From Perkinsus olseni (Eukaryota > Perkinsozoa > Perkinsida > Perkinsidae), in assembly GCA_013115135.1 (NCBI GenBank), contig JABANP010000197.1:1-64000 (forward strand): a stretch of 64,000 nucleotides of DNA. Reading direction: 5' to 3'. Shown here piece by piece: positions 3,471-41,827 of the stretch (positions within the stretch are counted from its first letter, which is position 1; every line of letters starts with the position of its first letter). A program made the position numbers and the translations under genes. The notes below the pieces were generated by a model. That model was not told the DNA's origin, did not search any database, and saw only the letters and a program-made list of their open reading frames with translations.

Positions 3471-3527
3471 GTGAGCGGGAAAATGCTACTCTGGTGGGGA
3501 TCGAACCCACGCCCTTTTCCTCGCCAG
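3471..3527 (+). repeat. 57-nt intron containing antisense tRNA T-arm
   Basis: The intron runs GTGAGC...CGCCAG. Read on the minus strand it holds an A-box match TGGCTCATCTGG and a perfect T-arm, GTGGG TTCGATC CCCAC, with no anticodon arm between them. One of the clearest members of the tRNA-like intron set described in the findings. Confidence 0.6.
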
Positions 3528-4745
3528 ATGAGCCACTTATTCGAGATAGACTCGTCACGAGTCAACAAAGAAGAAGTGTACGTAAAGCTGCCGTTGACGC
3601 ATGAACAACTCCACGCAGCCGTACTGGGGACAGGCGACGCAAGGCTCGGCCGTCACCGAGGTGGGACCTTTCTTCTCCTTGCAGACGAGAATCGCCTCAT
3701 CAGGGCCCATCATCACGGATCCTTTGCTGGCTGAGACACTGAATGTTGTCAAAGTCGTCCAGGGAGCAGTGTCGATGGAATTGGGGAAAATGAGAAGTGA
3801 CCAAGATGGTGAAGAGGAAGAAGAGGCCAAAGCGTTAGAACTAACGCATGCACTGAAGATAGGCCCACCCCTAAGATCTAAGGAGATAGTGGTAAGCTTC
3901 CCTCTGCCATAACTTCGCCTGCCACCTGCTGCCAGGTCGAACATATCCCTTCGGAGTGGCGAGATCCAGAAATCTCCGCCCTCTTCCCGGACGCCTCCGC
4001 CGTCCACACCGTAACCTGGGAGCTTGAGCAGCCCGAGCCGCAGGTGAGGAGGCCTTGTGAAGACCCTAATCTCGGCCCATGTGGTGCTTCAGGGCGAGCT
4101 GGAGTGGCGGGGCCACTGCAAAGTAGAGTTTGCGAGCGCCAATGTGCGCAACAAGCAGTACTCCAATTTAAAAGGGTGATCATCTTGCTGGGGTGGTGAT
4201 GTCATGAGGATTCCGAAACACCACGTTTCATTTCCAACCTCGCCCTGTGCAACGTTCTAGCGTGAATTTTCGAATGAGGAAATTTTTGGTGGGACAAACT
4301 GCGTTACCCTCCTATCACCCTTCAGGTGCACTGATGTGTTTGTCGGCTACGACTGGGAGGTAGCAGAGGAAGTGAACGAGGAGCTCCTGAAGCAGTTGGC
4401 CTCCGAGTTCGGCGTCGTCAACCACGCGAGGATTCCTGGCAAGTTCCGACCGCCCTTCACTAAGGATGACAAATCTCGACCTTTTGGATTCGTATCTTTC
4501 GCGGACAAAGAAGATGCTGTTAAAATGGGTCGGAAGAAGAGCCTGCGAGCCCCAGGTAGGGCAAATTTATCTGTGCAGTAGTTCAGTAGCGTGCATCGCT
4601 CCGCTCACATGAGAGCCATTTTTCAGTCACTGGTGCTGGAGGAAGAGTGGTACTACTTCGTCCCAAGCTGGGCAAGCATTTGGACGGTCCATTGAAGCGA
4701 ATACCAGTGAAGATTGGTGACTACGTCGAGATTCACAAAACGTGA
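3528..4745 (+). CDS. RRM-type RNA-binding protein
   Basis: Exon 1 from ATG 3528 reads MSHLFEIDSSRVNKEEVYVK.... To stay in frame with the next coding stretch it must lose one base in the GGGG run at 3626-3629; otherwise a start at ATG 3601 gives the second half only. Later exons follow by phase: an acidic region, then ELEWRGHCKVEFASANVRNK (like the RNP1 end of an RRM), then VFVGYDWEVAEEVNEELLKQ...RPFGFVSFADKEDAVKM (a second RRM-like half), and a basic C-terminal exon ending ...GDYVEIHKT at 4745. Introns are about 40-160 nt. An RNA-binding role is inferred from the fold; I cannot name an ortholog. Confidence 0.6.
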
Positions 4746-4819
4746 TTTCCCTACAGCGTCTTTGGGTTGCGTTGATACCATCTGGAACGGCTCCTACTTG
4801 AGGTTAATTTCCCACAATT

Positions 4820-5882: not shown

Positions 5883-7015
5883 TCACTTCTCAGCTCTCTT
5901 GAGCTCTTCGATCTTGTTGGGCGTGTTCCGCGGTGAGGGCTGTTCTTCACCATTGCCGAAGGCGTGCCGCTTCACCTGACCAACACGAATGGCGGAGGTT
6001 ACCACCAGCAGGGAACTCCCCTCACGGTGTCCCAAAGCTCTCGGCCGTTGTCGTCGACGTCCACGGCGATCTTAACAGGCTGAAAAGCAATAAACAGATC
6101 AGAGCGCACTCGCTTGAGATGATTCAGGCTACATGTTCTTTAACAGCAGCCGAGGCCCCTCGAGGTACAAATCGCAGCTCGGGGTTGATCGGAGGTGGTG
6201 CAGCCGGCACTTCAGTCTGACAAATCACAGCGGTGCGGCTCAACCATCGTAGCTGTGGGCCTACCAGATGAGGAACGATGGCACTCAGGTCCAGACCGGA
6301 GTCAGTCTGCAGCTGTGTTTCCGATACTCGCTTCACCACCCTCGCAGACCCGTCCGCCTGAACGCTACCAACTTTTCCGTATCACAGGAGCCGATCGATT
6401 CACCTTATTATTCACATCGAGCATGTAATCCGGAGTGTGTAAATCCTGTACCATCGCTTCATACCTGATGACGATGAAGCACTTCACCGCTCGAACCTAG
6501 CTCTCAATTTCCTCACCGCGGCCCTGGGTCTTGCAGCATGAACCGCGAGAGAGCCCCAACCGGGAGCTTAGCAGACAAAACTTCATCTGGGATGGTCACT
6601 GGATACCTGTCGGGCAGCGCTGACCCGCCGATCGGGTCACCGGACCTACTCTGGGTTCCACGTGAGGTCGGGCATCATGAACTTGATTTTAGCGGCGGTG
6701 CGGTAGTTGTCGAACCTCGTGGGCGGCGGTTTCGCTTGCAGGCCGGCCCAGTCCACTTTATTCAACATGTTGAAGCTCGGCTTATCGTCATCCCACTGAA
6801 GAATGACAGTCGAGAGGGCTCCTGACAGTGTATGCTCACGTAAGCGTCATCCTCAGCGGCCAGTTTCGGAGGAGTTTCCTCTTCCAGTGGCGCGGCCGCC
6901 TCAATGGCGTACTCGGGCTGAGCAAAAACGTGCGCATCAACTCGCCGGAGAGCGACAGCGTTATCATCGATAGTGAGCTTGCCTCTTCCTTCGCACGCCG
7001 ACTCATGAGAGCCAT
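5883..7015 (-). CDS. Uncharacterised multi-exon protein
   Basis: Nine or so short exons can be joined with consistent phase from MALMSRRAKEE (7015) to ...TPNKIEELKRAEK and a stop at 5883. Readable blocks include YWDDDKPSFNMLNKVDWAGL, RFDNYRTAAKIKFMMPDLTW, EYPVTIPDEVLSAKLPVGAL and YEAMVQDLHTPDYMLDVNNK. Introns are 43-65 nt and the first (6918-6982) appears to use a GC donor (GCAAGC) with a CTCAG acceptor. No transmembrane or signal segment. I do not recognise the family; an axonemal or splicing-related scaffold is possible but unsupported. Confidence 0.55.
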
Positions 7016-7845: not shown

Positions 7846-9918
7846 TCAGGCACCGAGAGTGCCGCAGATTGAAGAACGATCGATAGAGTCGATGGTGGAG
7901 GCGGCCAGAGTTTCGCTCGAGATGGACTCCCTGCTGTCGATCCGTGCCGCACCCAAGTGTCGCAACTTACCACTATCACCACCTGCAAGCACAAGCATTG
8001 CACGTCACACAGAACTTCGCTCCGCTCACCTAGGCCAGCATCTTTGCCAGAATGCTGCGAAGAATCGATTTTCCTCCTCTCTGCTGTAATATCTTGGAAG
8101 ACTTCACGGTAAAGTAAATGACTTTCTATCACTGACTTCGCGTCGTCTATCTCGTCCGCTCTGCCACACATCTCGATGCAGGGCCGCTCTTCCCCTGCCT
8201 CATCCGTATCCGAGTACCGGGCGTAATGGAGGGCAGTCTGTTCAGCTAAAGCTGACAAGTTGCTGAATCGAGGCCCAACCACCCACTGGACGCTGTCGCT
8301 TTCAATAGGGTATCTGCCCAGGACAGATCGACTACTGCCGGAAGTGAAGCGTCTCTTACTTTGTTATGAAAAACTCAAGCCGCCTTCGAGCAAGGGTTAG
8401 AGCAGGCTCTGAAGGCCCCTCGATAATCACCATTGAACCTGTTGGTGACTCTCGGGATACCTCTATTATTCGGACCTGACACGACGACATCCTAGGAGGT
8501 CCCCGGTTCGATCCCGGCACCCCTCACATTAACGCCAAATTCATCCTGAACGCTCTTCACATTAGCGCCTCCTTTCCCTATTGTGAGCCCCAGTAGCCTT
8601 CGTGTTGTGGCGAATTTGACAACCAAATTCCGCGGGGCTTCGAGATCCGTAAGATTCTCAGAGGCTACCGCGGCCGCCGACTTCACCGTAGACGACGACG
8701 ATGAAGAGGACCGTTGTAGTGTTGTCTTCCGAGGACCACTTGCCCGCGCAGATATCCTCCCATCACCGGCCCGCCTCTGACTTCTCCCTCCAGTCTGACA
8801 ACAACGCCGAAGTTCAACAGGTGCGTAGGGGGAGGGCGCACTCACAGTGGCTCTCGGCTGTTGTTGATGTTGTTGTTTTCTAAGGGCGAGTAAACGGCGA
8901 TGATGGAAAGACTGTATCTCCAATTGGTGGTCGACGTGGATGCTCAGAAGCATACAAGCTCGTGCTGTGGTGTGGGCGAACCCTATCAAATGTACTCTGG
9001 GATGGTCACAAAGTGAAGTCTGGACTGATATCTGCAGGACAAGGTGAATGGGCTCAACGGGGGGAGCTGCCCGCCGTACCAGTGATAGTTTAACTCTGAC
9101 GGCGATGTACTTCATGCAGGCCCGGCCATCATCAGAAATCAACCAATCAGCCAACGACTGAGGTACTTCATAAATTTCAGTCTTCAACTTGGTCAAGGAG
9201 GAGGCACCTATGGCGAAATCAACCTTTAGCAATCCATCGACCCAGGTTCAATCCCGGCACTACTACATTCAACAAGATCATCCTGCAGATGCTCAGGACT
9301 CCCCTGAGGCTGAACAGGTGCACGTAGATGGTCAAGCTCAACGATGGTATCCTCCCGGTCAGAAGGCAGTGGTCCCTCATCACCGTCGGGCTGCTGATTG
9401 ACATAATACAGTCCGTCCCTAACAACTCTGACAACACCAAGGCTCCAGCAGGGCGGCGTAGAGTCGCTCCCCAGTGACAACACCTGAACGAACAGCAACT
9501 GCGATAACAACAACACCTTCACGGTACTACTTCAACCGTGTCACCAGGGCCCGGTTGGAAGCTGCCCGGAGTAGCCCTCTTCGGAACACACCGGACCTGG
9601 TCGAAGGGATCTTTCTAGATCTCCGAGCAGATCGACGACCTACCGCCTCTACTGGAACGATCCTAGGCTGCCAGACATTGCTCTGGAACGCTATCCGCAC
9701 CTGAGAGCGGGAGCCTTCGAAGTCGTAAGGATACTACTACTAGTCCGACCAACCTCGCTAGCTTTTAAGTCGATCCCCGCCAGCTGTGCCGTGAACCTGC
9801 CGACGACGGACACGATACGCCTGGTCATGGAAGGACTACAATGGTACCATTTATTCTCGTAACCTCGAACCTCAACGGGCGCTGAGTAACACTGTACAGC
9901 GGCAGACGGCGGCTCCAT
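7846..9918 (-). CDS. FMR1/FXR-family RNA-binding protein
   Basis: The ATG at 9918 begins MEPPSAAVQCYSAPVEVRGY, matching the first Agenet/Tudor strand of FMRP. Spliced exons give VRIAFQSNVWQPRIVPVEA (end of the first Agenet), a second Agenet block (WSLGVVRVVRDGLYYVNQQP, DTIVELDHLRAP), KLKTEIYEVPQSLADWL, the pre-KH region (ARACMLLSIHVDHQLEIQSF), KH1 (RNLVVKFATTRRLLGLTIGK with GKGG loop; helix then RIIEVSRESPTGSMVIIEG), and a KH2-like module (YPIESDSVQWVVGPRFSNLS, PCIEMCGRADEIDDAKSVIE). Domain order matches animal FMR1/FXR, which bind mRNA and control translation. The KH2 GXXG reads VGPR, so RNA binding by KH2 may be altered. Two introns carry tRNA-like T-arms. Confidence 0.85.
8477..8527 (-). 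repeat. 51-nt intron in KH1 with tRNA T-arm
   Basis: The intron splits KH1 of the FMR1-like gene. It reads GTGAGGGGTGCCGGGATC on, with GATCGAACCGGGG inside, so the tRNA T-arm (CCCCGGTTCGATCCCGGCACC) lies on the strand opposite to the host gene. Confidence 0.65.
9208..9266 (-). repeat. 59-nt intron with tRNA T-arm
   Basis: Second tRNA-like intron of the FMR1-like gene. It begins GTAGTAGTGCCGGGATTGAA and ends GCCATAG. The T-arm (CAGGTTCAATCCCGGC) is antisense to the host gene. Confidence 0.6.
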
Positions 9919-10147: not shown

Positions 10148-13080
10148 CTATCCGCTACCAGTGTCCTCTTCTCCTGATCCCCCCATTGTTCGCCTGCGTT
10201 TTGCGGCCGGCGGGGAGACGGCACCCTGCTCTGGTCCATCCGAAGGGTCGTCAAACCATGCATGATCATCCCTGCGCAATAGATGCCGCTGCCCGGGTTC
10301 GAACTCGAGACCTCCGCGCTCACAGTGCTCGCTGGGCGGACCATCTCTTCTTGTCGTCCACTCGGAGGAACATGTCAATGAGATCCTTCGCTACCTCAGA
10401 GACGTCCTCCCATTCCGCGAACGCGAAGCTATACCTAACCACCCGGGTTCTATCCCCACACCTGACATGCCCTACTCTGCATTTAAAATCTTCTGGTCCA
10501 GCAACCCTCCCTGACCGTCGGGGTCCTCATCCACCGAGAATGGCGGTGTCGCCGACAACAACACGTATCTGGCCGACGCTCTATTCCTCCGCCAAGGAAG
10601 CATACAACAGCTGCGTCAACAACTCGTCCCTAGCCGAACGAAGACAGTCGTCAGTCGAGCCACGCAGATCTGCTCCGGCGTATTCCGCCACACTCCTACG
10701 TCCCCACCATACGCCGGCCACGGTGAAACGAAATTGCATGCCGACCCTGATGGGCGAATTTGGTGGCGCGTGACGCAAGTATTACAGTATGACTCCCAAC
10801 GCCCAGCAATCCACTTTGTTGTCGTAGGTCACTCTTCGGCCAAGCTTCAACATGACCATCTCCGGGGCAAAATAGTGAGGCGTTCCACAGTAAGTCCCTA
10901 CGGTATAGCCGCCTACCAGTCCTACTGCCAAGGCTCCCTACCAGCTGCCTCGCCGGTAAGAGGATTGGTGTGGCGTGCCAGGCCAAGATCTGATATTTTA
11001 CCATGACGTTGGTCGGCCGTAAGGAGTATCTTTGAAGATACCACCATCAAACAACCGAGGCACATGAGGTTCAGACGACAGACTGAATGAACCGAAACGA
11101 CCAGGCAGCAGCGAGACCAACAGACAGCACGCGCGGACATTCTCAGGCTTGAGGTCCCGATGGATGATGTTATGACTGTGCATGTATGCAACGCCACTGC
11201 AGAGGTCACGGAAGAGCACCTGAGCGTCCGGCTCTCGGTACCTGGCAAAATGATGGGGGATCGGGCAAGGAGTGGTACTAGTACGCGCCGTGGTTGAGGA
11301 GCCTTTCGAGAAGGTCTCCACCTTGCATTAATTCAGTAACAATAAAGAGGCTTCGATGGTTCTCAAAATACGTGTAGAATTTGACGATCGCCGGATGGTC
11401 CAACTCGCGTAGGACCTCGAATTCGGATCTGATCGACAAGAGTTGGGAAAGGAGTGGTACGAAATACCCGAAAATCCCACCTAAATGTAACACTGTTGGA
11501 CTTAGTGCTCTGCTGGAACTTGAGTAACTTGGCCAGATCCAGCTCCTTGATGGCAACCTGCTTGCCACCCTCCTTCTTCTCCGTCGCGCTATGCACCGTG
11601 GCGAAGTTCCCCTGTCCGAGGGGAGCATTGATGTAGTACCTGTTCCCTGCTTTACCCAATAAATCCATCAGCCCCCCCCCATTACAAATCCTCCATCGAT
11701 CGTCCGGCTGTGTCCCTGGGCGGGTCGGAGTCCTCGCAAGTCGACGCTGAACTGATCGCCTTCTTGCCAAGAGGCCTCCCAACCTCGGAGCTGTCGTTAT
11801 CGCCAAACAGCGCACCGTTGTATTTATATTCCGTCAGGACAGCTCTGAATGTGAATTCCTGTAGAGACGACGCAGACAGTCGAGTTGGTAGAATCGCCAT
11901 CCATCATCCTACTATCCCAGGATCGATTCCCACCGCCACCGCATCTTTTCCCTGACACGCCAGCGACACATGATCACCCGACTTCAGCGGATGCATCTAA
12001 AACACCCCAGGCAACCATCAGAGGGCCCTGGTCGTCGTCGTCGTAGGCGGCCTACGTGCTTCTTAGGGAGCCTCTTATCGTTGAGATAAGTCCCATTGGT
12101 CGACGAGTCTGTTATATGGAAGGCCTTACCGTCATGCTCCAGAGTAACGTGCCTGAACACGGAGTGTCTTCACACCAGTGTAACGCCAATTTCCGTACGA
12201 GCCAGATATCCTGTCATCGTTCAAAACAATGCTGCAAGAAGGGCTACGACCGATGGTGATGGAGCTACGCAGGCCTGCAGTCACCCGCGAGGTCGAAGGC
12301 CGCCATTGGTACCTGAGGGGACGTATTTTTCGACCGTTCCTCTGGAAGGGGCCGTAGGACTTGATATCGCCGCTGAGCTGAGCTATGACGGGGTCCTGTT
12401 GCCCGACGGTATCACGATCCCTCCTTCTCCGAGGGGCGGGCACTTCCTCCCGAACTGATAGAAATACCGTAAAACCAATACTCATAGTGCCGATTGTACC
12501 CTGAGTAGCTGCAGGAGGCATTGCCTGAGTCATCCCTACGACGGCACCATCCATAATCTCCTCCTCGAGCGGATCCTCGTAGCCCAATGGCTTCCATAAG
12601 GCCACGAGAAGAGGCTCAGGATGCCCCCTTATGAAGGGGCTCGTCACCAAGGAAAAGCTGTCTCCCGGCCTGGAGCACAGAGGGTCCATGTGCTACATGG
12701 CCGACTCCACCGCACCTTAGGACTTCGGTCTTGTTCGCTATTAGTCGCCTGGACCCGATGTATGTGCCGTTCCGAGAGACATCAGTGATGGTGATCTCGT
12801 CCTCCTGACCCGATTTCGATGGGTCGTGATCCAGTCGAACCTACTTAGCTGCTTCGACTGGGGAGCGTCTTATGAAGCCTACATGGACGGTAGAGACCTT
12901 GGGGTCTTGGACCTCCACATCGTTAGTACCATCCCTGCCAATGCGCCACGACGATCGGTCCGACCAAAGCTCCAGGGTCTGCTCTTTGTTCTTCCACTGA
13001 CTGGTGTTGATAGTCAAATATAACGTCTGCGGGAGACACAGGAGTTGCGATTTTAACCAGGCGTGGATGGGCAGGCCCAT
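10148..13080 (-). CDS. CHK2/Rad53-like kinase with two FHA domains
   Basis: From ATG 13080: FHA1 (WRIGRDGTNDVEVQDPKVST then ITITDVSRNGTYIGSRRL), a linker, FHA2 (SSITIGRSPSCSIVLNDDRI, HVTLEHDGKAFHITDSSTNG), then a Ser/Thr kinase: glycine loop APLGQGNFATVHSA, VAIKELDLA, HRDLKPENV, KISDLGLARH, GTYCGTPHYFAPEM, YDNKVDCWALGVILY, and a C-lobe end KRWSAQRALDDHAWF. The tail is basic with KRRR, a possible nuclear signal. FHA domains bind phospho-threonine; FHA-kinase fusions of this type act in DNA-damage checkpoints. Human CHK2 has one FHA and yeast Rad53 two flanking ones, so two N-terminal FHAs is unusual. The metal-binding motif is DLG, not DFG. Three introns carry tRNA-like T-arms. A 5' exon near 13.1 kb (DWQPPPPLTGDSEFETPV) may precede. 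Confidence 0.85.
10272..10323 (-). repeat. 52-nt tRNA-like intron
   Basis: The intron GTGAGCGCGGAGG...GCGCAG lies near the C-terminus of the FHA kinase and contains GAGTTCGAACCCGGG, a B box that reads in the sense direction of the host gene. Confidence 0.55.
10435..10475 (-). repeat. 41-nt tRNA-like intron
   Basis: The intron GTAGGGCATGTCAGGTGTGG...GGTTAG contains GGGGATAGAACCCGGG, a T-arm antisense to the host gene with one change in the B box. It is short enough that the T-arm makes up much of the intron. Confidence 0.5.
11859..11939 (-). repeat. 81-nt tRNA-like intron
   Basis: The intron of the FHA kinase starting GTGGCGGTGGGAATCGATCC and ending TCTACAG holds a degenerate T-arm (GGGAATCGATCCTGGG). 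Confidence 0.4.
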
Positions 13081-14436: not shown

Positions 14437-15565
14437 ATACAACGAATGCGCTGTCTGTTACTTCGAGCTCTACCGGCTCCCAGTGGGCATCCTGCGGTCC
14501 CAGAGTAAAAGGGCGTGCTCGCACTACTTCCACACGGAGTGCATCAAGCGACTGGTCGCGAAGAACGCGTAGGAACTCCCCTGGACCTGCATTGTTCGAG
14601 CGCGCATGCTCAGGCATGAGGCGCGTAATGCGGGCCATGCTGCTGTGCGGGAGTGTCCTATATGTCGAGCCAAGTTCAGTGACATCAAAACCTTGCCAGA
14701 CGTCTTCAAGGTGAGGTCAAGATACCACTAGGATCTTAGCCCGTCGTCAACTCGGTCGAGGAGTCTTCATGAGCTCGGAGTAACCTCAGGATCCCCGAGC
14801 ATGGTTTCAACTCTGCGATATAGACTGTGGTGGCAGTCTCGACAAGGAAGAGGTCCTGGGCGCCCTCGGAGCGGTTCTACCCGTGGAGAGAGACAAGCTC
14901 GCTGAGTAGGTCACATGGCTCTACGCGTTTGGTCATGTGCCCTTCAGGGCGATCGAGGAGAACTGGGTGGTTTGGGACCCCGACAATGATGGCTCCATCA
15001 CTCTCACCGAGTTTGTTGAGCCTCGCAGAGGCCTGCGAGAGTAGGCCGTATGCATGAGATGCCGGGCCCGAGGATCGAACCTTCGACCGCAGATACCTTC
15101 TGAGGAACTTCAATGTCATCAAGACAGAGAACCTTAATATACGGCCTGATGACATTCCTGACCTCGATTCCCATCCGCTCGAATGGTTCAACTTCTGGGA
15201 CGGCAATGGCAATGGTGGGGCGCTTTGCTTCACAGCAGCATTCGGGCCGATATCTCAGCAGGTTCTCTAGAGCGGAGCGAGATCGTCCGGGCTATCGTGA
15301 GAACCTTCTGCGTGAGCCCCAGTGGCGAGCCTTCCTTCAAGCGTGCTTTTGACTTGAGGGAGATGGCTCTGTTCATCTGGGATTCACTCGGGTGGGGGAA
15401 CGGCTCGACACGAGAGATTTAGGATAGTCCGTCAGGTATCACGAGTTCGGAGAGCTCACCTTCGAAGAGTTCAATGCACCATTTGGTGTCGGGGATCAGA
15501 TATACCATAACTACATCCATGGCATGTACTTTGGCGAGAACGAAGAGCACAACTTTGCCTGGTGA
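14437..15565 (+). CDS. RING-finger protein with C-terminal EF-hands
   Basis: Five' end open. A split RING finger comes first: YNECAVCYFELY, ACSHYFHTECIKRLVA, then ECPICRAKF in the next exon, giving the usual C-x2-C...C-x-H...C...C-P-x-C spacing. EF-hand loops follow: DIDCGGSLDKEE, DPDNDGSITLTEF and DGNGNGSLERSE (the last created across an intron), then a possible degenerate hand ending FGELTFEEF. The stop is at 15565. RING domains act as E3 ubiquitin ligases and EF-hands bind calcium, so a calcium-sensitive E3 is a reasonable inference. The third EF loop spliced across two exons supports the gene model. One intron is tRNA-like. Confidence 0.75.
15041..15092 (+). repeat. 52-nt tRNA-like intron
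   Basis: The intron GTAGGCCGTATGC...GACCGCAG of the RING/EF-hand gene contains CCGAGGATCGAACCTTCG, a T-arm antisense to the gene (CGAAGGTTCGATCCTCGG on the other strand, with fully pairing arms). Confidence 0.65.
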
Positions 15566-19294: not shown

Positions 19295-21760
19295 ATGCCT
19301 GAGGAAGTGGCGAAAGAGTATGATGCTGTGGTAATAGGAGCCGGCATTGCTGGCTTGAACTGCGCCAAACGCCTCAAAGCGGCTGGAGCATCTACGGTAG
19401 TCCTCGAGGCTAGCTTTCCATATTGGTGGGCGGTGCAGGTAGTACTGGTGGCGGAGCATGAGTCGGGGAAATAGCGGTATTGAGGGATCGGCGCTAGAGC
19501 TGGATGAGAGAAGCATGTCGGCAGATTTCTCTTCACTATTTCACGAGCAAGTAAAATCTTTTCCGGTCATTTTGAGTGAATTTTGACACCTATTCAGAGA
19601 GGCGCTTGGGATGGGCAAACGATGTAGTCGTGAGGGATGGACTGATGCTGGATACCGCACCAAAGGGAATAATATCTGATATGTGGAATTGGGAGCCGTG
19701 GAGGCTCGCACCTTCCCTGCCTTGACGGGCCTGTTGATCGTGAACACGTCAGGACGCTTCATGAGAGTGACATGAAGGCACCGGGCTCCCATGGGTGGTG
19801 GATGCATACAGAGGGCAGCATAGGCCGGGGCAATAGCCATTTCGACGTTGGTGAGTGAGGGTGGAGCATCAGCGAAGGCCTTATGATATTGCCAAGGTGC
19901 CGAGTTCATACACGGCGACGGCACGAGCCTGTATCGAATGGCGCAGGAGAAGGGATGGAATTTGCAGAAGGTGCTACTCAAAGGACAAGGGTTTGCTGAA
20001 TGAGCACTCCTCCTTCTCAGCTCTTCACGTGGGCTCAAGGTGATGGTGGTCCGAATGATGAGATGGTCAATGGCGGAGCTGGCTACTACTATGTGGATGG
20101 ACAGCTGTATCGGTTTGATGAGGTAGAAGCTGCCTTCGTTACTTCTTCTCTCGGTGTGAGATTTCGGATTGGTGTGCCTGAAAGGGTGAAAGAAGAACGA
20201 CAGGATTTTCCACTGTCATTGCAGTTGCCACCGGACTTCCGAGAAACGCATGAAATCCTGTCGAGAATGGCCGATGAGTATCCTGTGGCGCACAGCGAAG
20301 ATATGGAGGCGGTTTTGAGGTCGAGGGGCGTATCAGATCGTTCGGAGAGGTTGGTTCAAGCTGGATATGGCAATACTGCCGGTGGAGCATTTCGAGTACT
20401 CAGTTGGCGCGCTAACTGTGAAGCGGTAGGTCCCCGGTTCGATCCGAGGCTAGGATACATCCAATCTGATCGTCAGGAGCATTTCTATGAACGTGATGAT
20501 GGCGACCATGACTTCCAAGTCGAGCAGGGCTTCGGGAGACGCGGTCATCGGTGAGCTCGAGAAGGATGCTGGCGAAGTAGTTCTCGTCGGCTTGGACCCC
20601 CGCTGTGACTTGGTCGCTTCAGGTGCGAGTCCGCCACCGCGTCATCAGTGTAGCCATGGGGACCGATGGAGTTGCATCAGTTCGATGCTCCAACGGCCGC
20701 GTGTTCAGAGCGCCCACACGTTATTCTCTGCGTAAGCCCGATACCATCGTCATAGGTGTGGACTTGTCCCTCCCAGGTACCCGTGCCGGTACTGCAGGGC
20801 AGCTATGGCCCGACCGAAAGCATCGCGATGAGCCCGCCCTTGCCCCAGTGGAAGGAGAACGCCATCCAAGATGTGGGCGCTCCGCCGTTGAGGCCTTGCG
20901 GGAAATATCTTTTTTCTCAGATGACGTGCTCACCCTCCTTGAAAGTGTACGCTAAGTTCAGTAGGAGATTCTGGCCGGCTGATATGCATGGTATGATCTT
21001 CGCTCTGCCGAACCTCATACCGGAGGTCTGGACGGATCATGGCAGCGACAACATTCTCTGTGGTGAGTTCTCCGACTGCTAGTGCTCCTACCACGTGCAG
21101 TATCGCTCAGGGTTTACGATGGCGTCTTGGGCGGAGCGATGTGGCTCGATGCCGCCGGCTAAGCTGCTGGAGGCCTTCCTGGAGCAGCTTGATCGGGTCT
21201 TTGACGGCAAGGCGAGTGGGGCTTATGAGGGAGGTGAGGGAGGGAGCCTATCCTTGGAGACTTGGGTCGTCCAGGTCTCCACGTTGCAGATGTCGCATCG
21301 CTCTTGTTAGGCATGGTTTTCGACTGGGGGAAAGTGCCCTATATTCGGGCTGGTTACTGCCCGCCTTCCGTGACAGAGCAAGAGGACACGAGACGGAAAC
21401 TTGCTGAACCTATCCTATACGATACAGGTCGGTTGAAGACACCTAGTTGGGTATGGTGCATCGGCGTCGAGCTCAGGTTACAGCCTCCACTTCGCTGGCG
21501 AAGCGGCTAATCCGGAGTGCTACATGACGGCCCATGGTAGGCCTCGCGTGAGGGTGGGGGGCGTTCACTAGCAGCGTGGTGCCCTTGCAGGTGCGATGGA
21601 CTCCGGCGCTCGTGCTGCGGAAGAGGTTCTGCGGCTTTTCAAATCGGACAAGACTACGGGTAATAGCCCTTCGGTGAGGGGGGCCGGTGGAGGGGATGTT
21701 GACTTGCTCTCAGGGTCTCCAGCAGCGTCGAAGGCTCGGCAGTTGTCTAGCAGGCTTTGA
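19295..21760 (+). CDS. Flavin-containing amine oxidase (polyamine oxidase/LSD1-like)
   Basis: Starts MPEEVAKEYDAVVIGAGIAG, a Rossmann GxGxxG for FAD, followed by LKAAGASTVVLEAS. The expected next motif HIGGRCR is present at 19419-19437 but one base out of frame. Later exons: GAEFIHGDGTSLYRMAQEKG, LFTWAQGDGG, a helical substrate-domain exon (MADEYPVAHSEDMEAVLRSR), SPPLPQWKENAIQDVG, KVYAKFSRRFWPADMHGMIF, ASWAERCGSMPPAKLLEAFL, VPYIRAGYCPP, and the C-terminal FAD motif LHFAGEAANPECYMTAHGAM, then SGARAAEEVLRLF. The stop is at 21760. Such enzymes oxidise polyamines or methyl-lysine; no SWIRM or tower domain was seen, so polyamine oxidation is more likely. Some middle exons (19.6-19.8 kb) are uncertain. 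Confidence 0.85.
20426..20476 (+). repeat. 51-nt tRNA-like intron
   Basis: The intron GTAGGTCCCCGGTTCGATCC...CGTCAG in the amine oxidase gene carries the B box in the same direction as the gene. Confidence 0.6.
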
Positions 21761-28275: not shown

Positions 28276-29839
28276 ATGCACGGGGTCAAGCGAACTTGCG
28301 GGGCTCTCGGATATGCTAGCAGATCGGTGGAACTGGCGGTGTATTATAGTAGTGATCTCAGGTCGTCTTTTGCGCTTGCTGACGATTCCGCTGTTGAGGA
28401 GTCGTCGGTAGCTTTTGGTGAGCTAGTGAGCTCTATTGAAGGAGAGGTGGAGGACATATTGGAAACTCTACCCGAGATCGGTAGAAACGTCATCCGCAGG
28501 GATCGAACCTGGGATCTGTCTCACGCTGGCAGATACTACCTACTCACCTACCTGGAAAGCCGAGCTAGTGTCTAAGTTCTACGGGAAGGATCGTCTTTTG
28601 CCGATAAATTTGGAGACGTCTTTATTCACGTTGATTGTGGCCCCGCCTGGTTGGAGGAGCCGCTGGACCCCTACGCCCAACTGCTGCATCGACACGTAAG
28701 TTAAAGTCGGATGGTGGATTGAATGCGACCAAGTCGACCGAAGGTGCGCTTGGCCGGCATGCACGTTGAGCGCCTGCGGAGTGTCCGACTGGATCGAGAT
28801 GAACGACGGGGAGAAGAAACAGATGGTGACCGAGTGGTTGGAGGCGGCGCAGCAGGAGTAAAGCTTATTCGTAGTGCTAGTAGAGTTTCTTATCTTACTA
28901 TCAAGGACGGCGTTGTGTATTGCAAGGGGGGAGGCGCCAGGGTTTTGGTCAGTGTGGCCTTTGTGTCATGGTGTGCTCGAAAGGTCGTCTGCAAGCGTCG
29001 GTTGAGGGCTCTCCAGAGGTGGAGGTCCTTCGGGACTCCGACGCAGCCATCGTTCGGTTCAAACTGGTACCCACGGGAGCTTCGGCTGGGCCTTGGTTTG
29101 ACTGAGCAGGTGGTGACCTTGCCGCTGTCGATTGTGCGGAACTCGGTGGAGTCAAGTGCGTCAGCAGACTTGGCCATAGAGTCACAAGTGGAGGCCGTAC
29201 TGAAAGATGTTGTCCAGGTGAGCAGGATGTGCTGTTGGTACTATAAGCGGGAGGTGTAGGGTTCGATCCTCGGTCACGCTCGTTTTATTACCGCACTAAT
29301 ACCGTGTTTATTGGCTCAGGATGCTACTAAGGAGTCAGGGGATCTTGCAGCGCCTTCCAAAGAGGGCTTGATGCCCCCGCCTGGTTTGGGGCCGGCCTAC
29401 GGTTCTGAAGATCTCAGTGAATCTACTGAAAATCACCCCTGGAGGTAGTGGGATTTTCGGGGAATTTCGTGGCGCAGTGACGCTTCCAGCCTGGCCGGCC
29501 TGGCTGGATCAGAGGACCCCTGGAACCGAGTGCCGATAAGGGCGTGTAAGGAGGAAGCTCATTATCACGATTACACGGAGAGGTTCAAATGGGATTGGAA
29601 CTCGGCACGATACATGCTCCGCGATGCCGAGCAGAGGAACCTACAACGACAGAAGTATCTTAGCTCGGCCTATGGACAATTGCATCCGCAGGAAGTAGGT
29701 TCAATTGGTCGGTGTGTGACTCGCCGATGCCTTTCGTAGGTCCTGGGTGGGACCCTCGGAGGGGAGGACCGACGAGGAGGGGGAGAGCCGCTACCACTTC
29801 GGGTGGGTCATTTTTGGAATTGTGAATGCTATTGTGTGA
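28276..29839 (+). CDS. Uncharacterised multi-exon protein
   Basis: Starts MHGVKRTCGALGYASRSVEL and continues through an acidic exon (EGEVEDILETLPEI) and FGDVFIHVDCGPAWLEEPLD, SDWIEMNDGEKKQMVTEWLE, a Val-rich exon (VVTLPLSIVRNSVESSASAD), a Pro-rich exon, HYHDYTERFKWDWNSARYML and GESRYHFGWVIFGIVNAIV at the stop. Phases agree for most joins. Two introns (28481-28532 and 29218-29319) hold tRNA T-arms in opposite orientations. No domain recognised, and more than one gene could be present. Confidence 0.4.
28481..28532 (+). repeat. 52-nt tRNA-like intron
   Basis: GTAGAAACGTCATCCGCAGG then GATCGAACCTGGGATC and an acceptor CTGGCAG. T-arm antisense to the host gene. Confidence 0.6.
29218..29319 (+). 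repeat. 102-nt tRNA-like intron
   Basis: GTGAGCAGG...GGCTCAG contains GTAGGGTTCGATCCTCGGTC in the sense direction, followed by TTTTATTA, which could end Pol III transcription. Confidence 0.5.
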
Positions 29840-30485: not shown

Positions 30486-32700
30486 ATGGATGATATCCTA
30501 ACCTCGGATACTCCGACCATCCCTGCGCCCACCGAGAGCCCCTTGTCCAGCTCGTCTGCCTTCATCACGAGCTACCCAGCCGTCCTGCTTGCCTTGGGCC
30601 TGATGCTGCTTGCGTGGCTGGTGACCATCTACAATTGCTTCCAACATTTATTGAACTACTCCAGAGAGGATTTGCAAATGCACATCATCCGCATTGTGAG
30701 CTCGTTGCTAGCGGAGCGTTGCTTTGCCCATGCTTGCTTCTAGGTCTTGGTGGCCCCCCTGTACGCCTCTGGGGCCTTCCTTGCGGTATGCCTGTCGAAC
30801 GTAGACCTGGGGGTGCTTCTGGAGTCCATACCGGAGATATGGGAAGCGGTGGTGGTCTACTCCTTTTTCTGCTTGATTCTCACGTATGTTGGCGGCGAGC
30901 ACAATTGGATACAAAGTGAGTGACAAGCATCGGAGCCGCAGATTCCGTCACGCGCCACTAAATTCTGCTGACCAGGTACGCAGTATACAGCGCCGGATGG
31001 CATCCAGCAGCCGTGGCCACTGAACAAGTGTTTTGGGAATCTTGCCCTCACGTCGGAGTTCCTCAGGGGGATGAAGAGATGCGTGCTTCAGTTTGTCGTA
31101 TTGAAGCCGGTCATGACGGTCACTGAAATTGTGAGTTTGCAAGCCGCCGGGATCGAACCTGGGTGATTCGTAAGCGAGAGCGAGGCGTGACTCATTTTCT
31201 CTCAGTTAATGCACATTCTGGGACAGAGCGATGATAAAGTGTGGACTATCATTCGGGAGGTCGCTTATAACTTATCATACTCGGTAGGTCCCGCTCGGGA
31301 TCCAGAGGTCCCTGGTTCGAATCCTGCACCTGTCAGGTTGCACTATATGCCTTGGGCCTTCTGTACATATCTTCTAGGCGCCATCCGAGTCTGCGAGACA
31401 AACGGCCCCTGGCGAAATTCGTCTCGGTGAAGTTGGTCATTTTCGTCACTTTCTGGCAGCAGTACTTCTTCGACCTCATTTTCTCGAAGGATGCTGAAGC
31501 GATCGGCATCAAGTGGAGCGCCTTCGTCGTGTGCATAGAGATGGCCATGTTCGCCATTCTCCTCACCTCCGCCTTCACCTGGCGGGAGTTCGAGTTTGAA
31601 TGGGTTGAAGCATCCCCTCCTAAAGTTGATGACATTGAGATGGGCAAGGTTGAAAGTGAGGCCGCCGCGTTTACAATCGAAGAGACGCTTCTTCTGCTCC
31701 GATACATTTTGTCGGGCCTCGATTCGTCCACCATGCTTGGGGTTGCCAGATGTTCTGCTTTGCAGGTGCTGTCCCAAGGTGAGGATGGGGCCTCGACGGA
31801 TGGGGAGCAGAGCCCTCGGGAGGAGCGGCCGTCCGATCCCGAACAGCAGCAGCAGCAGCCAGCACACGTTACTTACGGTCAGTTGTCTGCACGCCGCAGA
31901 GTGTGTTTGATGGTCTTGCTGGCATTAGGTACGAATAGTCGTATACTTCCAACACAGGCGGACATACGGCTGGCCTTGGCGAATGCAAAGCGGTCGCTGT
32001 ATCCGTCGGACGTGGCACTGGATACGTCCAGGAACTGGAGTACTCGATATCAAGGCCACGTGAGTTTCTGACCTGTCTCCTACGATCTGCTATGTATTTT
32101 TACGTTGTGCTTGCAGTCATAGTGAAGACCATTTAGGTGCTGTTGGAGACCAGTCAAGCGTTCGTGGGCGAGGAGGATGAGGAGCTGGAGGAAGCCTCCG
32201 AAGCTCGGAAAGAGGGCAGCATCGCATCACCCGAGACTAACTCGGAAAAGTCGGCTGGGTGAGCACTCCGTCACGCGCCACGAAATTCAACCGTGTTTCT
32301 CTCGCTTAGAAGTCCCCGACGGAAAAGCCTCAGCGGTACAGACTGAGCCCCTTCTTGTTATTTTAATGGTTTGTATTACAACATTCATGGGCCTCTTACC
32401 GGTCGCACTATCATTGCTGCTACACTTCATTCCGAAACAAAGAAGAAGTTCAGAACATTCCAAAAAACTAGATTTTCGTTTTTCGTGGTGGTTGTGCGAT
32501 CCGTTCGTTTAGTGACTCCCACCATGCCCTCTAAGCATGCAGTGAGTATAAAGGCTCATTCGTCCACTCCCGAAGGCCACGCTGCTCCGCCCTCGGTGTC
32601 CAGCCACGGCAGCATCCTCGGCAGCCCGGAACTGGGGCCGAAGAAGAGCGATGGTGAAGATGATCATGAGAAGCGAGACTCTCGAGACTCCGTATGGTAG
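30486..32700 (+). CDS. TMEM184/OST-alpha (DUF300) family membrane protein
   Basis: MDDILTSDTPTIPAP... leads into TM1 (YPAVLLALGLMLLAWLVTIY). Further exons: NYSREDLQMHIIRI, then membrane segments VLVAPLYASGAFLAVCLSNV and AVVVYSFFCLILTYVGGEHN, LRGMKRCVLQFVVLKPVMTV, DKRPLAKFVSVKLVIFVTFW (QQYFFDLIF) and IKWSAFVVCIEMAMFAILLT, SAFTWREFEF. The K-F-x-S-V-K-x-V-I-F-x-T-F-W-Q and C-I-E-M-x-x-F blocks match the seven-helix family that includes TMEM184 and the organic solute transporter alpha subunit. The C-terminal tail is long, hydrophilic and Ser/Glu-rich, ending at 32700. The exact substrate is unknown. Two introns carry tRNA T-arms, one in each orientation. Confidence 0.8.
31131..31205 (+). repeat. 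75-nt tRNA-like intron
   Basis: GTGAGTTTGCAAGCCGCCGG then GATCGAACCTGGGTG and an acceptor TCTCTCAG. Antisense T-arm (CACCCAGGTTCGATCCCGGC). Confidence 0.65.
31284..31336 (+). repeat. 53-nt tRNA-like intron
   Basis: GTAGGTCCCGCTCGGGATCC, then GAGGTCCCTGGTTCGAATCC and an acceptor CTGTCAG. Sense T-arm. Lies only about 80 bp from the antisense copy in the same gene. Confidence 0.65.
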
Positions 32701-35064: not shown

Positions 35065-35566
35065 GACTACTTGGGCGAGCGCTTATTGCGTAGAGAGGTG
35101 GTGGATGAGTTCGTGTTAGGCTGGCTGGGACTCGCATCAATGCTGAACGGTCTCTAAAGGAAGACTGCGGCGGTGACGAGCAACTCTATTTATCCAATAA
35201 AAACATACAGCCCCTCATGAAGGACCTCTCTGGGGTGAGTGAACGCGATGGTTGAAATGCCCGCCGTGGGAATCGAACCCGGGACCTCGGGCATGTGCGC
35301 CACTCAGGTCCGTGGCCGCGGTAACGACACGAGCGGAGATGAAGACTTGACGGTTCCCACTGAACAATACACACACGTAAGATATCGCTTGCTGCGGGTG
35401 CAGTGACGGTGGTCGATCTCAGCCTCGACTCTATAACGAATCGCCTGCCCTGGCGTTCTGCGCTCTAGCAGCGTCAGAAGGGAAGGGCCGGAAGGAAGCG
35501 CCATCAGCAGCGCAGCCAGCGCCCACGGTCTCGTTCCGACCCCCGACCAAACCCAGGGGCCTATAG
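35065..35566 (+). CDS. Small uncharacterised gene, 5' end open
   Basis: Blocks DYLGERLLRREVVDEFV, then DCGGDEQLYLSNKNIQPLMK, DLSG, a tRNA-like intron (35235-35307), VRGRGNDTSGDEDLTVPTEQ, and a Pro/Ala-rich end ...VSFRPPTKPRGL at 35566. Phases agree. No start codon located and no family recognised. Confidence 0.4.
35235..35307 (+). repeat. 73-nt tRNA-like intron
   Basis: GTGAGTGAACGCGATGGTTG, then GCCGTGGGAATCGAACCCGG and GACCTCGGGC to the acceptor CCACTCAG. On the other strand it reads GGTCCCGGGTTCGATTCCCA followed by CGGCGGGC, like the 3' half of a tRNA. Confidence 0.65.
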
Positions 35567-35622
35567 ACTGACTTGTTCATCATTTCACATTCACTTTGAT
35601 TTGTGTGAGTCAATCGTCGTTG

Positions 35623-36343
35623 ATGGCTGGGCGAGAACGAAGCGATCCTGAAGCGACTTTCTTTGCTGCTTCCGTGGATGCTCGAATGATACCAATGGCG
35701 AAGGTATCGTTGCCTATTCGCTCCTTGAGACTACCGGACCTCGGAGGCCCATGCCCGGGCACTGCCAGGGCCTTATCAAGAGGGAAGCATGTGAGTCAAA
35801 CCCGCCTGCTCGACCGTATATTTCCAGCTTGCCGGATGTGAGTGTAGCGTGTAGACTATTTCGGTCTTACTCAGCTCGCCTGGAGAGGAGGCGCTGACGA
35901 TAGGCCCGGGTGGGCCAGCCCGTTTTGTGACCGATCGAGAAGTGTCGCCGGCTTGTGAGGGGCTCCAGGCGAGGTAGATGGCCCTCGTGACGCCTCCGGT
36001 TTTTACCCGGTGTGTTAGCCTCTCAGTACCATACCCAAGTGTCACGCCTGCGAGTTCCTATGTAAGCCGTTTCGACCGGCAAGCGGCCATGAGGTCGCTG
36101 ATGGTGGCGTTTGTGTAGGTACGGAAGGGTTCTCCTCACGGTCTCATGGTCGGGGCTCGAAGAAGTTATGATAGCGTAACCGTGACGGCAGCACGCTTGA
36201 GCGATTCTCGGATGGGTGTCCTGCTGTTCAGATCGATACGTTGTCTCCCGCACGTACGGGATGGCCTGGAGTTGTTCGGAAGCCATTTGGAGTCCCATTG
36301 TTCTCTGTTGAACGAATCCTTCGACGACACATCGTCGAAGTAG
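35623..36343 (+). CDS. Uncharacterised small protein, complete model
   Basis: ATG 35623 begins MAGRERSDPEATFFAASVDA. Four exons join with matching phases: ...LLDRIFPACRI / SPGEEALTIGPGGPARFVTD / SLSVPYPSVTPASSYVSRFD / SIRCLPHVRDGLELFGSHLE, with a stop at 36343. The last codons form a perfect hairpin (CTTCGACGA...TCGTCGAAG at 36318-36340), so stem and stop codon overlap. No domain recognised. Confidence 0.5.
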
Positions 36344-36947
36344 ACTTCGTTGTGTTGTACATAGTGAGTGGCCTTTGAGTTAATAATAAGTCACAACGAG
36401 GCAGGAAGCTTAGCAGAAGTAGCTAGTTCGATAATGTTGACGTCTGCCGGGATCGAACCTGCGCGGAGTAGGCGATTCGAGATTTTGGCATAGTTGTCTC
36501 CCCACTCGAGCAGATTCGCAGACGTGAAGTATGGACTGAAAAGCGTTTGCCCTCATCGCTCATATCGGTCAGTGAGAGTTCTTGTTGTCAGTCTCGCTTC
36601 AACGTCGCACCTGAAGCATCTTCATGTTACGCGATGGTTATGTCCGACCCCACAGTAGTTGATTAATATTGCATGCCCATACCCAGTAGTTCAAGTAGAT
36701 TGCGGCGATCTAGTTCTCTCTCTGGAGGGTATAGTCTGGTAGGGCACGGTCGAACAGCACCGTATCACCGTGTGACCTAATCAGTGGTCTGATTCTAGCC
36801 CTCGTTCTTAAGACCCTTCAAGTTCAATTAATATCTCACCGGTTAGTCATCTTCTGTTTACGTTCGTTTTGCACGATAGAGCCGGTCTGCTTGGGGGCCG
36901 TTGATGGCTCTTCTCTTTTCAAGGTCAGTCTCATCTTCGCTGCTGCC
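36344..36947. other. Gap with a tRNA T-arm copy
   Basis: No supported gene. At 36440-36475 GTCTGCCGGGATCGAACCTG is an antisense tRNA T-arm of the same type found in introns, so a spliced leader exon of the following gene may lie here. Confidence 0.35.
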
Positions 36948-38785: not shown

Positions 38786-39387
38786 TGCTTGAGTACATCT
38801 ATTCCTTCGGGTATATCTGTTTTGATTGTGCAGCGTTCACGCCGCCAGCGATGGACAAGGATAAGCGGGACATTCGAAGGTAATGCTTGAGAGGGGAGAA
38901 CTTCTAGAGGCGTTCAGCCGTGGTGAATAACAGTGGGATGCCTTCGTCCTTGACTTTAGCAAATTCGGCCGCTATGACGAATTCGGGACTTCTGTTAATA
39001 GCCAGGGAGTAATGAGGTTGTATATAGTTACCACAAATATTTCGGTTCTAACCCTTACGATGGTCAGCAGGATGATACAGGGTCGGGCAAGGGGGACCAT
39101 GGGCAATGGACTGACATACTCTGTGTTATATGACATGGTATTCGATAATGAAGCTTCTAGCCAGAGAGTGTCTCGTTAAAGTAGGGGAAAATAGCGGGCT
39201 CGGTGGGGAGTGCACCATTTCTGATGGCATGCGAGCATATCGCGGATCAGGGCTGGCTGTTGTGCGGCTCGGCCGTCCTCCTTCCGGGAAGAGTACTCGG
39301 TGCGTAGGTTGTCCTGTTGATCGCGTGATGCTATCGATAAAGTCGGGCAACAGGCAGGCCGAGGAGAGCACTAATGGGGAAGTGTCG
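38786..39387. other. Gap, possible leader of the next gene
   Basis: An open plus-strand frame from 39130 runs into the RRP4 start but its ATG-to-39387 part has no homology I can see. Otherwise nothing supported. Confidence 0.3.
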
Positions 39388-41827
39388 ATGTCCATGCTGG
39401 ACTCGGCGCATCATCAACAGATGTACCAAAGGCAGCTGGTATTGCCGGGGGATGTGATCAATGCTGAGAAGGGCTTCTTGAAGGTAGTAGGAGGGCTGGA
39501 TGGATCGGGCAAGGGGCCCTATGCCTGTGGCTTGGCTAAGCAAGAGTGTAGAATCGACGCAAACACGTGAGGGTGACTGAGGTGATGAACGGGACTTTGC
39601 ATGTCGTGAGTCTATCATTAATAACCCACCGTAGCCTCACGGCATCTTAGCTGAGGATTGTATTTTGTGTGAGATGACGCCCTAGAGGGCGGTAGGATGC
39701 CGAGCTCAGATATGTGGGATGTATTGTTCTTATGGCTTGGGTGTTCCTACTCGGATTTTTTGTGCGTGAATTTCGGTCCTGAAAGAATGGTGTCTTGGAC
39801 GTTTCAGTGTGTTGTGGTTCGTTCTTCGAGTTGCTGTGATGAGTGTACCTCTGTGATCACTGAGCGGCTCGGTCTCGATACGTCGACGACGGAATGTATT
39901 GAAATTAGTATCACCAACGCTGGCATGCCGCGGTTTTCCGGGCGGATTGGGGTTCGATGGTGTAGGGTCGCGGCCTTCTAGTTGACCCCGTCGACGGCAA
40001 GCTGGTTGCTACTGTCAGAGGGATCTTAGAGAGAGTCAATAAGCTGCTGTACATACGCCCTTTGAAAGTACTACTGGGGAGAGGGCTCGTCGAGGGCGTC
40101 GTGGAGGGAAGTCTGATCTCAGAGTCGGTATACGGGGGAGGTCGGGGACGTTATCGTCGGACGGGTCGCTGAGGTGGGCGGAGATAGATGGATGCTGGAC
40201 TATGGCGGGTAAGCCGATGGTCTAAGGATCGATCCTGAGGTAGGGCATTTTACGTTCAGAGGAGGATCTTTGGCGTCCTTGCCCATTGGTGGTGTTAACC
40301 TTCCGCAAGGAGAGCAACGTCGTCGGACTGATACCGACCGGATGAACATGCGGGCCATGTTCACTGAAGGGCGACCTCGTCAGCGCTGAAGTAAGACTTG
40401 TCAGCTTTCGAGAGAACTTCGGCGGGCAGGATCGACTGTTTGCGAAGCTACTCTCGATGTTCGGGGCTTTCGCAGCTTCTCCCATGTTATTCGCTGTTAC
40501 CGTTGGTTGGAGCTTTCCTCTATACGTTGGGCTGTACATGGTATTTTCATCACGTTCCTTCGCACAGGAGGCGCTGGCTGCCACGCCAATACTACGATTG
40601 AGATTTTCGACCTTCTCTTCCAGACGTTGAGACCGCTCTTAGCGTCATCGTTATGGGTCTCACCTCTTTTTCACCCTTCAGATTCAGAAAGTGGTATCGG
40701 ACACTGGAGATGTTATTTTGCATACTCGAAGTGCTAAGTACGGCAAACTGTATAATGGCCAGATGGTGCGAGGTAGGAAGGCTGAGCAGCAGCTGCTGAA
40801 CCAGTCGAAGGCATGCTTCTCGGTAGTGTCCTCCTCCCTGGTGAGGAAGACAGTCTTCCCATATTGTTGAGAATCTCCCAGCACCCTTCGATCATGTAAG
40901 TGGGACGTTTGCACTGTCTCGTTGTAGGGGTGTAGTAGTAGAGCGCAACATAGGTAGATTGGGCTCATTGGGAACTAGATTGAGCGAGGAGTGGTAGAGA
41001 CGGTGGTTGTAACTTACTAATGGTATGAGCTTAGCTCGATTGTGTTGTGTTGACAGCGCACATTGGTGAAAACTTGATGATGCCTCGGCTGCTGTCTTCT
41101 TCTCTGCGTGGACGTGGCAACGCCATCCGTGCTGCTCCTCAGTTACAGCTTGTACTTGGCCTGAACGGTTGGATTTGGGTGGGTATGAGGCCGAAGCAGT
41201 CCGGGCATATTCAGTCTATTAACTTCACACAAACAGAGAAGGGGTCAGCTAGTCATCACCACCATTGATGTCTCAACCGAGTGGTGTTGTTGTAGGTTCC
41301 AGGAGGTTGACCAAGCGTCGAGACAGGCCATATCTCTCCTCTGTGCATGCGTACGTTGGGAGATGCCGTTCCGTGAGCGTGAGATTCTCGAGTATATTAG
41401 ATCGTAGTGATAGCGCGGGTGACGATGATGATGGAGCTGTGATGTTCAGATTGAGGCCCTGGGCAGTTCTTTCTCCGAGGTAACAGTGGACTCGATGCTA
41501 GCCGTGGTTGATGCCGCTCGACGGAGAGGACTGGAGGGCAAGGACTTCTTGTAAGGCATCAGGGTGGTTCGATTCTCGGCACTGCGGTCAGCTGCGCCGA
41601 GGCTACCATCCGGGGTCATTCTCTCTCACTCTCTCCGCGTGGGAATTGATGGGCCGTTTGTGTTTGACTTTGGGTGTACTTCACCCGATCCGAAGCTGGT
41701 GGACGGGGATAGGTTTCTTGTCAGGATTCCGGAAGTGGCTCTGGAGTGCGCGAACGAGGCACGCGAAGTCGCGGCGGGAAGGAAGGTTGTGGAGGACGAC
41801 GATGAGCAGATGGTCGATGCTTCCTGA
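39388..41827 (+). CDS. RRP4: Exosome cap subunit RRP4
   Basis: MSMLDSAHHQQMYQRQLVLP, GDVINAEKGFLK gives the N-terminal domain. Then VDPVDGKLVATVRGILERVN, KLLYIRP and EVGDVIVGRVAEVGGDRWML (S1 domain), NLPQGEQRRRTDTDRMNMRA, MFTEGDLVSAEVQ, VSDTGDVILHTRSAKYGKLY, SVVSSSLVRKTVFPI, LQLVLGLNGWIWV (G-x-N-G-x-I-W-V of the KH part) and ASRQAISLLCACVRWEMPFR. RRP4 binds RNA at the entrance of the nuclear and cytoplasmic exosome. One extra G at 40369-40371 breaks the frame in the conserved E-G-D motif. The last exons (41.48-41.83 kb, ending GRKVVEDDDEQMVDAS) may belong to this gene or to another. A tRNA-like intron is at 41551-41591. Confidence 0.8.
41551..41591 (+). repeat. 41-nt tRNA-like intron
   Basis: GTAAGGCATCAGGGTGGTTC then GATTCTCGGCACTGCGGTCAG. 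Sense B box, almost filling the intron. Confidence 0.6.

What the first reader, a model, noticed from the sequence alone, without database searches (positions are those of the whole stretch)
3471..41591. Introns built on tRNA T-arms: candidate tRNA-derived introners
At least thirteen introns that I could place by reading frame contain the T-arm/B-box of a tRNA (consensus CCAGGTTCGATCCCGGC): 3471-3527, 8477-8527, 9208-9266, 10272-10323, 10435-10475, 11859-11939, 15041-15092, 20426-20476, 28481-28532, 29218-29319, 31131-31205, 31284-31336, 35235-35307 and 41551-41591, with a weak one at 45513. Most are 41-75 nt long, so the motif makes up a large part of the intron. Both orientations occur, with antisense the more common. 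Host genes are unrelated (FMR1-like, FHA kinase, RING, amine oxidase, TMEM184, RRP4). Further copies lie outside mapped exons (1946, 22850, 26262, 36445). This is hard to explain by chance. It suggests that tRNA-derived short elements either inserted into introns or created the introns (introners), bringing GT and AG ends with them. Introners are known in several protist groups; a tRNA-fragment origin would be notable.
Basis: partly seen in the sequence, partly recalled or inferred. Interest (0 to 1): 0.88.

Follow-up and report, generated by a model that had tools for sequence, protein, structure and literature searches.

The report
Introns made from tRNA gene pieces
In the genome of a shellfish parasite close to Perkinsus olseni, about one in sixteen of the short predicted introns examined consists largely of the tail end of a tRNA gene; these fragments likely turned into introns when they landed inside genes, which would be a new source for the genetic elements that create introns.

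Summary
A gene finder blind to tRNA motifs, run on the window and 180 kb of another contig, recovers most of the listed introns. Of 286 predicted introns of 80 nt or less, 18 carry the element, against 0.5 shuffled and none in reversed introns or exon pieces. Conserved proteins cross six junctions without an insert. The shared piece is a tRNA gene's 3' end, from the anticodon loop to the discriminator base, then a run of T, in both orientations.

The introns were probably made by the element, not invaded by it: median length is 52 against 50 nt, and element density is 11 times that between genes. In five of 18 same-strand introns (three weakly predicted) the anticodon loop gives the 5' GT.

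Against simple tRNA copying: T-stem strands no longer match, left and right parts assort independently, and no target-site duplication, CCA or A box was found. Twelve near-identical duplicates showed no empty site. Splicing is predicted, not measured. Best reading: a tRNA-derived, introner-like class, new in its source; spread by retroposition is inferred. Reader introns 11859 and 41551 and the weak one at 45513 are not confirmed.

The parts
3471..3527 (+). predicted intron, 57 nt; T-arm on the opposite strand (B box 3497-3507)
   Evidence: local splice/coding scan gives exactly these ends, score 6.5; the gene finder merged it into 3392-3703
8476..8527 (-). predicted intron, 52 nt, KH-domain gene; T-arm on the opposite strand
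   Evidence: gene finder; PWM 25.5; range of the KH_1 match spans the junction (alignment not printed); present in the near-identical copy on C694
9208..9266 (-). predicted intron, 59 nt; T-arm on the opposite strand
   Evidence: gene finder; PWM 12.6
10272..10323 (-). predicted intron, 52 nt; T-arm on the same strand, GT at tRNA position 34
   Evidence: gene finder; PWM 25.9
10429..10475 (-). predicted intron, 47 nt; T-arm on the opposite strand
11859..11939 (-). near-complete tRNA-like sequence (D-arm AGTTGGTAG and degenerate B box) in a possible intron
   Evidence: one end only recovered (gene finder 11859-11912); no good local intron
15041..15092 (+). predicted intron, 52 nt, EF-hand gene; T-arm on the opposite strand
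   Evidence: gene finder; PWM 22.1; EF-hand match
20426..20476 (+). predicted intron, 51 nt, upstream of an amine-oxidase domain; T-arm on the same strand, intron starts GTAGGTC at tRNA position 42
   Evidence: gene finder; PWM 28.9; one other frame is open through it
28481..28532 (+). predicted intron, 52 nt; T-arm on the opposite strand
   Evidence: gene finder; PWM 26.4
29218..29319 (+). predicted intron, 102 nt; T-arm on the same strand
   Evidence: local scan gives exactly these ends; gene finder gave 29218-29259
31131..31205 (+). intron, 75 nt, TMEM184-like gene; T-arm on the opposite strand
   Evidence: gene finder; range of the PF03619 match spans the junction, and the P. chesapeaki protein P0001 reads through it, compared by eye
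31284..31336 (+). intron, 53 nt, TMEM184-like gene; T-arm on the same strand
   Evidence: gene finder; range of the PF03619 match spans the junction, and P0001 reads through it, compared by eye
35235..35307 (+). predicted intron, 73 nt; T-arm on the opposite strand
   Evidence: local scan gives exactly these ends; not in the gene-finder models
   Evidence: gene finder; PWM 20.9
41551..41591 (+). possible intron, 41 nt; T-arm on the same strand
   Evidence: 5' splice site recovered, 3' end not
36444..36463 (-). T-arm outside predicted short introns (others: 1956-1966 -, 22852-22862 -, and 26292-26308 + inside the long predicted intron 26055-26425)

Best explanation
A class of short predicted introns in this Perkinsus genome consists largely of the 3' end of a tRNA gene (anticodon loop to discriminator base plus a T-run), and these introns likely arose when copies of this sequence inserted into exons in either orientation and were spliced out from the start. 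Shown: the class exists well above chance on two contigs and in a systematic genome sample; the core follows tRNA numbering; groups of copies share part of the core at sites with mostly unrelated flanks; conserved proteins need six of these segments removed. Seen in part of the predicted same-strand introns: the anticodon loop gives the 5' GT (position 34 or 35 in 7 of 18), and the T-run lies just before CAG, as a polypyrimidine tract would (49-nt intron of L063: GT at 34, end GGCATCTTTTCAG). Inferred: insertion rather than gradual sequence change; copying by reverse transcription of RNA polymerase III transcripts that end in the terminator, with template switching in the conserved T-loop as one way to get the mosaic left and right parts; upkeep of the B box because active copies need it. 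Opposite-strand copies would be spliced from sites in the element's edges and the target.
For: PWM built from 40 sites outside window and C13:1-180000: 18 of 286 introns of 80 nt or less score at least 12, against 0.5 shuffled, 0 reversed, 0 exon pieces, 1.1 between genes; only one further intron scores 6 or more. B-box score at least 9: 17 of 307 introns of 110 nt or less, 0.9 expected. The three commonest 10-mers shared by short introns are B-box words. Forty genome sites: 16 lie in an intron-like GT..AG with coding flanks at score 8, against 98 of 1200 random positions, P 9e-8. Density 6.54 per 10 kb in short introns against 0.59 between genes; without the tRNA-Gly gene 0.83 expected, 11 seen, P 1.6e-9; per genic DNA (exons plus short introns) 1.04 against 0.50 per 10 kb, P 0.21. 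Median length 52 against 50 nt. Profile with edges near tRNA positions 35-38 and 77-79; C72 39 of 61, A73 37 of 61, T at 74-77 97 of 188 in elements outside same-strand introns. Left parts in near-identical groups: 12 pairs at 14 or more of 16, 0.06 expected. L065 core at five further places, two covering 29/30-78, two ending exactly at 62. GTAATC group: 120 genome matches, 0 control. Junctions confirmed by conserved proteins. At least 150 reverse-transcriptase matches, many in open frames above 1000 residues.
Against: No target-site duplication, in register or free. No empty site in 12 near-identical duplicates of 10 introns (only the best 40 of 60 candidates were scored). T-stem strands do not pair beyond permutation (91 of 192, 88.6 expected), whereas real tRNAs in the held sequence pair 244 of 258, so these are not faithful recent copies of tRNA genes. 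No A box of the searched form in 286 short introns (0, 1.05 by chance). No CCA after A73 (0 of 61). T-arm introns are slightly longer than others (Mann-Whitney P 0.016), and 14 longer predicted introns also hold a B box at 8.7 or more. Three of the five introns with GT at position 35 (L059, L089, L090) are weak predictions, scores 4.7-5.0, a level that up to 22% of random positions reach. Three of the five L065 matches carry the same variant and may be duplicates of one locus. No RNA data; most introns are predictions, and GT/AG-bearing elements could be favoured by the gene finder. The sharp left edge partly follows from how pairs were chosen.
Confidence: 0.6

Rival explanations
1. Ordinary tRNA pseudogenes or tRNA-derived repeats inserted into introns that already existed; introns merely tolerate them.
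For: Copies also lie between genes and in long predicted introns; tRNA gene arrays are large in this genome; both orientations occur; carriers are slightly longer than other short introns, P 0.016.
Against: Carriers are only 2 nt longer in the median, although the core alone is about 40 nt; density is 11-fold that between genes, P 1.6e-9.
Confidence: 0.15
2. The B box is kept in introns as a functional DNA element, for instance a TFIIIC site without Pol III as in yeast ETC or fission-yeast COC loci (recalled), so it was selected into or held in introns rather than brought by a mobile element.
For: Scores are bimodal, B boxes intact while T-stem pairing is at chance; orientation does not matter.
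Against: C72, A73 and the T-run at the right tRNA distance are also kept; separate places share 31-50 nt at 90-100% identity; there is no clear reason for such sites to be rarer between genes.
Confidence: 0.15
3. Fragments spread by tRNA-targeting DNA transposons of the Dada superfamily or by repair of double-strand breaks with tRNA DNA as filler.
For: Dada families inserted in tRNA-Ile, -Leu, -Gly and -Tyr genes are reported from P. marinus, and in zebrafish one-ended events leave a copy between fragments of different tRNA genes (PMC3706591, passages), which might lead to the mosaic left and right parts.
Against: Three of the five tRNA-targeting families of P. marinus have TAGCTC in the A box as putative target, not the anticodon loop; no duplication at the intron edges.
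Confidence: 0.15
4. Chance: B boxes are short, the genome has many, and reading by eye favoured GT..AG around them.
For: Single B boxes do occur by chance, 4.61 expected in the window at 1 mismatch.
Against: Blind gene models, independent contig, shuffles, reversed and exon controls.
Confidence: 0.02

Closest known systems
Introners (Gozashti et al. 2022, PMC9860276, passages read)
   Same: Related sequence in many introns of unrelated genes, short; families without TSD or TIR are reported, and copies outside genes were recovered there too.
   Different: Source is a tRNA gene end; only a 30-50-nt core is shared; subgroups are mosaic. The terms tRNA, SINE and Perkins- have no occurrence in that paper's main text.
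Amoebophrya introner elements (PMC7789003, passages read)
   Same: Relative of Perkinsus within the dinoflagellate line; repeated introns.
   Different: Those carry inverted and direct repeats and lie among non-canonical introns; these are GT..AG, and no flanking direct repeat was found.
tRNA-derived SINEs (recalled)
   Same: Dispersed tRNA-related sequence with B box, oligo-T at the 3' end.
   Different: No A box of the searched form or 5' half in most copies, no body, no duplication.
Dada transposons in tRNA genes (PMC3706591, passages read)
   Same: Fragments of different tRNA genes brought next to one element; known in P. marinus.
   Different: Elements of 4.7-11 kb with a transposase; reported target sites lie elsewhere in the tRNA for three of five P. 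marinus families.

Membership tests
Introner | sequence-similar introns at many unrelated gene positions | tested here: met
   18 of 286 short introns share the core; near-identical left parts with mostly unrelated flanks; L065 core at five further places
Introner | similarity reaches the splice sites at both ends | tested here: inconclusive
   5 of 18 same-strand introns start exactly at tRNA position 35, three of them weakly predicted; most ends differ between copies
Introner | intron gained: empty orthologous or duplicate site | tested here: inconclusive
   12 near-identical duplicates of 10 introns, all carry the intron; no related species' DNA available
Introner | TSD or TIR (present in some families only) | tested here: not met
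   no TSD; TIR not tested on its own; neither is required of all introners
tRNA-derived SINE | A and B boxes of an internal Pol III promoter | tested here: not met
   B box yes, A box of the searched form in none of 286 introns; the D-arm word AGTTGGTAG occurs 4 times in short introns
tRNA-derived SINE | target-site duplications | tested here: not met
tRNA-derived SINE | transcription by Pol III | not testable with these tools
   no RNA data
tRNA gene or recent tRNA pseudogene | folds and scores as tRNA; T-stem paired | tested here: not met
   only tRNA-Gly 13755-13825 reported as tRNA in the window, also at E up to 10; pairing at chance, real tRNAs 244 of 258
Spliceosomal intron | GT..AG, removal restores a conserved protein | tested here: met
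   alpha-tubulin-like, SMC4, atlastin by alignment; KH and TMEM184 twice by match range, the latter also against P0001 by eye
Spliceosomal intron | splicing seen in RNA | not testable with these tools
   no RNA data
Dada insertion footprint | transposase or its ends next to the tRNA fragment, 6-7 bp duplication | not tested
   no Dada search was run; no duplication at intron edges

The most novel reading that the evidence does not exclude
A tRNA 3' half is a ready-made minimal intron: the anticodon loop supplies the GT, the Pol III terminator supplies the polypyrimidine tract, and CAG follows. A short selfish lineage built on this, kept alive by its B box and reshuffled in the T-loop, has seeded thousands of introns in Perkinsus (18 per 244 kb would scale to some 4,500 genome-wide), linking RNA polymerase III elements to intron birth.
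Probability: 0.3. Interest if true: 0.88.

Novelty: new variant of a known kind. Interest (0 to 1): 0.76.

Why it matters
Where new introns come from is a long-open question. In the broadest survey seen here (PMC9860276, passages) most introner families show at least one sign of DNA transposition. A tRNA-gene source would add a second kind of raw material, present in every genome, and could supply the GT and pyrimidine tract itself. It can be tested directly because proteins of other Perkinsus genomes are already public. The same class could be sought elsewhere by scanning short introns for B boxes at fixed distance from a T-run.

Tried and rejected
A first gene finder without an intron penalty predicted thousands of introns and was dropped. 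Rfam tRNA models, also at E up to 10, do not see the elements in the window. Target-site duplications: none. A tail of decayed copies: none seen; scores are bimodal. T-stem covariation: none overall. Copy of window 20100-40000 elsewhere: no long match, only a 140-nt repeat and one other short match; part of 8427-10520 has a near-identical copy on C694 with all four T-arm introns. Alpha-tubulin paralogues: the copies on C290 and C823 have no intron within the matched stretch, but are old paralogues at 35-54% identity, so they do not date the intron. Atlastin has no close paralogue, one weak match on C43. Reverse splicing of whole introns was set aside because copies do not share intron ends. 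A first T-stem count on real tRNAs was mis-indexed and redone. The checkpoint-kinase protein search gave distant or partial Perkinsus matches and was not used to confirm further junctions. Searches for prior reports: introner with tRNA, Perkinsus with intron, introner with intron gain, intron gain with tRNA-derived and spliceosomal introns, P. olseni and P. chesapeaki with genome assembly, introner with retrotransposon, SINE or origin of introns, Perkinsus with tRNA genes and introns: no listed title or start of abstract, and no passage that I opened, reports tRNA-derived spliceosomal introns; the library lacks most subscription papers.

Rows dropped before counts: the real tRNA-Gly was left out (64 kept); three more (one of a duplicated pair and a palindromic exon pair; 61 kept). 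The 40 sampled sites are the first 44 of the 100 places listed (328 in all) without two already held on C13 and two later C13 places. In one search only introns up to 80 nt were used (33; one at the very start of C13 left out), each with up to 45 flanking bases. The same-strand and opposite-strand sets (18 and 22) mix gene-finder introns at B-box score 8.7 or more with sampled sites at intron score 4 or more.
Full report
What the window is. It is positions 1-64000 of contig C109 in a 61.48-Mb, 968-contig genome. The genome has 164 places matching the dinoflagellate-type spliced leader CCGTAGCCATTTTGGCTCAAG within 2 mismatches, most of those listed reading CATCTTGG, and 0 in the control. A TMEM184-like protein from the window is 99% identical to a partial P. 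olseni protein over 40% of the query and 87% identical to a P. chesapeaki protein over 99%. I take it as P. olseni or a very close relative.

Noticed in passing
window 30916-30975, 32259-32309; C13:77910-77955; window - strand 10775: A second sequence, (T)CCGTCACGCGCCACNAAATTC, shared by short introns in both orientations: in two introns of the window at 95% over 22 nt, in part (17 nt) in a third on C13, and once more inside a long predicted intron. Possible second introner-like family.
   Followed up: partly
window 10110-10158, 11242-11284, 11429-11480; C13:66004-66076: A third shared sequence, TACCACTCCTTNCCC, in whole or part in four short introns, both orientations.
   Followed up: partly
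window 6358-6403, 26516-26581, 11859-11912; C13:95175-95218: The tRNA D-arm word AGTTGGTAG occurs 4 times in 16.8 kb of short introns and once in the other 227 kb (word chosen after seeing it; introns named). tRNA 5' parts may also become introns.
   Followed up: partly
window 22923-23076: 154-nt element with perfect 17-nt terminal inverted repeats TATACCATTTCCAGACC; its interior gives 30 of 31 genome matches at 72-79%: a MITE.
   Followed up: partly
C13:182000-198400: Tandem array of tRNA-Ala genes, 141-nt unit; further tRNA arrays on C778, C823, C607.
   Followed up: no
L049:2534 (C179): A tRNA-Thr array copy whose 5' part is lost at about the anticodon while 3' part and flank match the array unit.
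   Followed up: no
window 8427-10520 and C694:10092-12176: 98-100% identical duplicate at the four T-arm introns tested, all present in both: haplotig or recent duplication.
   Followed up: partly
window 44811-44860, 47332-47381, 49706-49755: Three diverged copies of a 50-nt coding-like segment 2.4-2.5 kb apart: perhaps a small tandem gene family; the model holding the first begins with a hydrophobic stretch.
   Followed up: no
window 50464-50514: Near-perfect 25-nt inverted repeat with a 1-nt gap.
   Followed up: no
C290, C823: Tubulin-type genes without an intron in the matched stretch, while the divergent copy on C13 has several introns.
   Followed up: no
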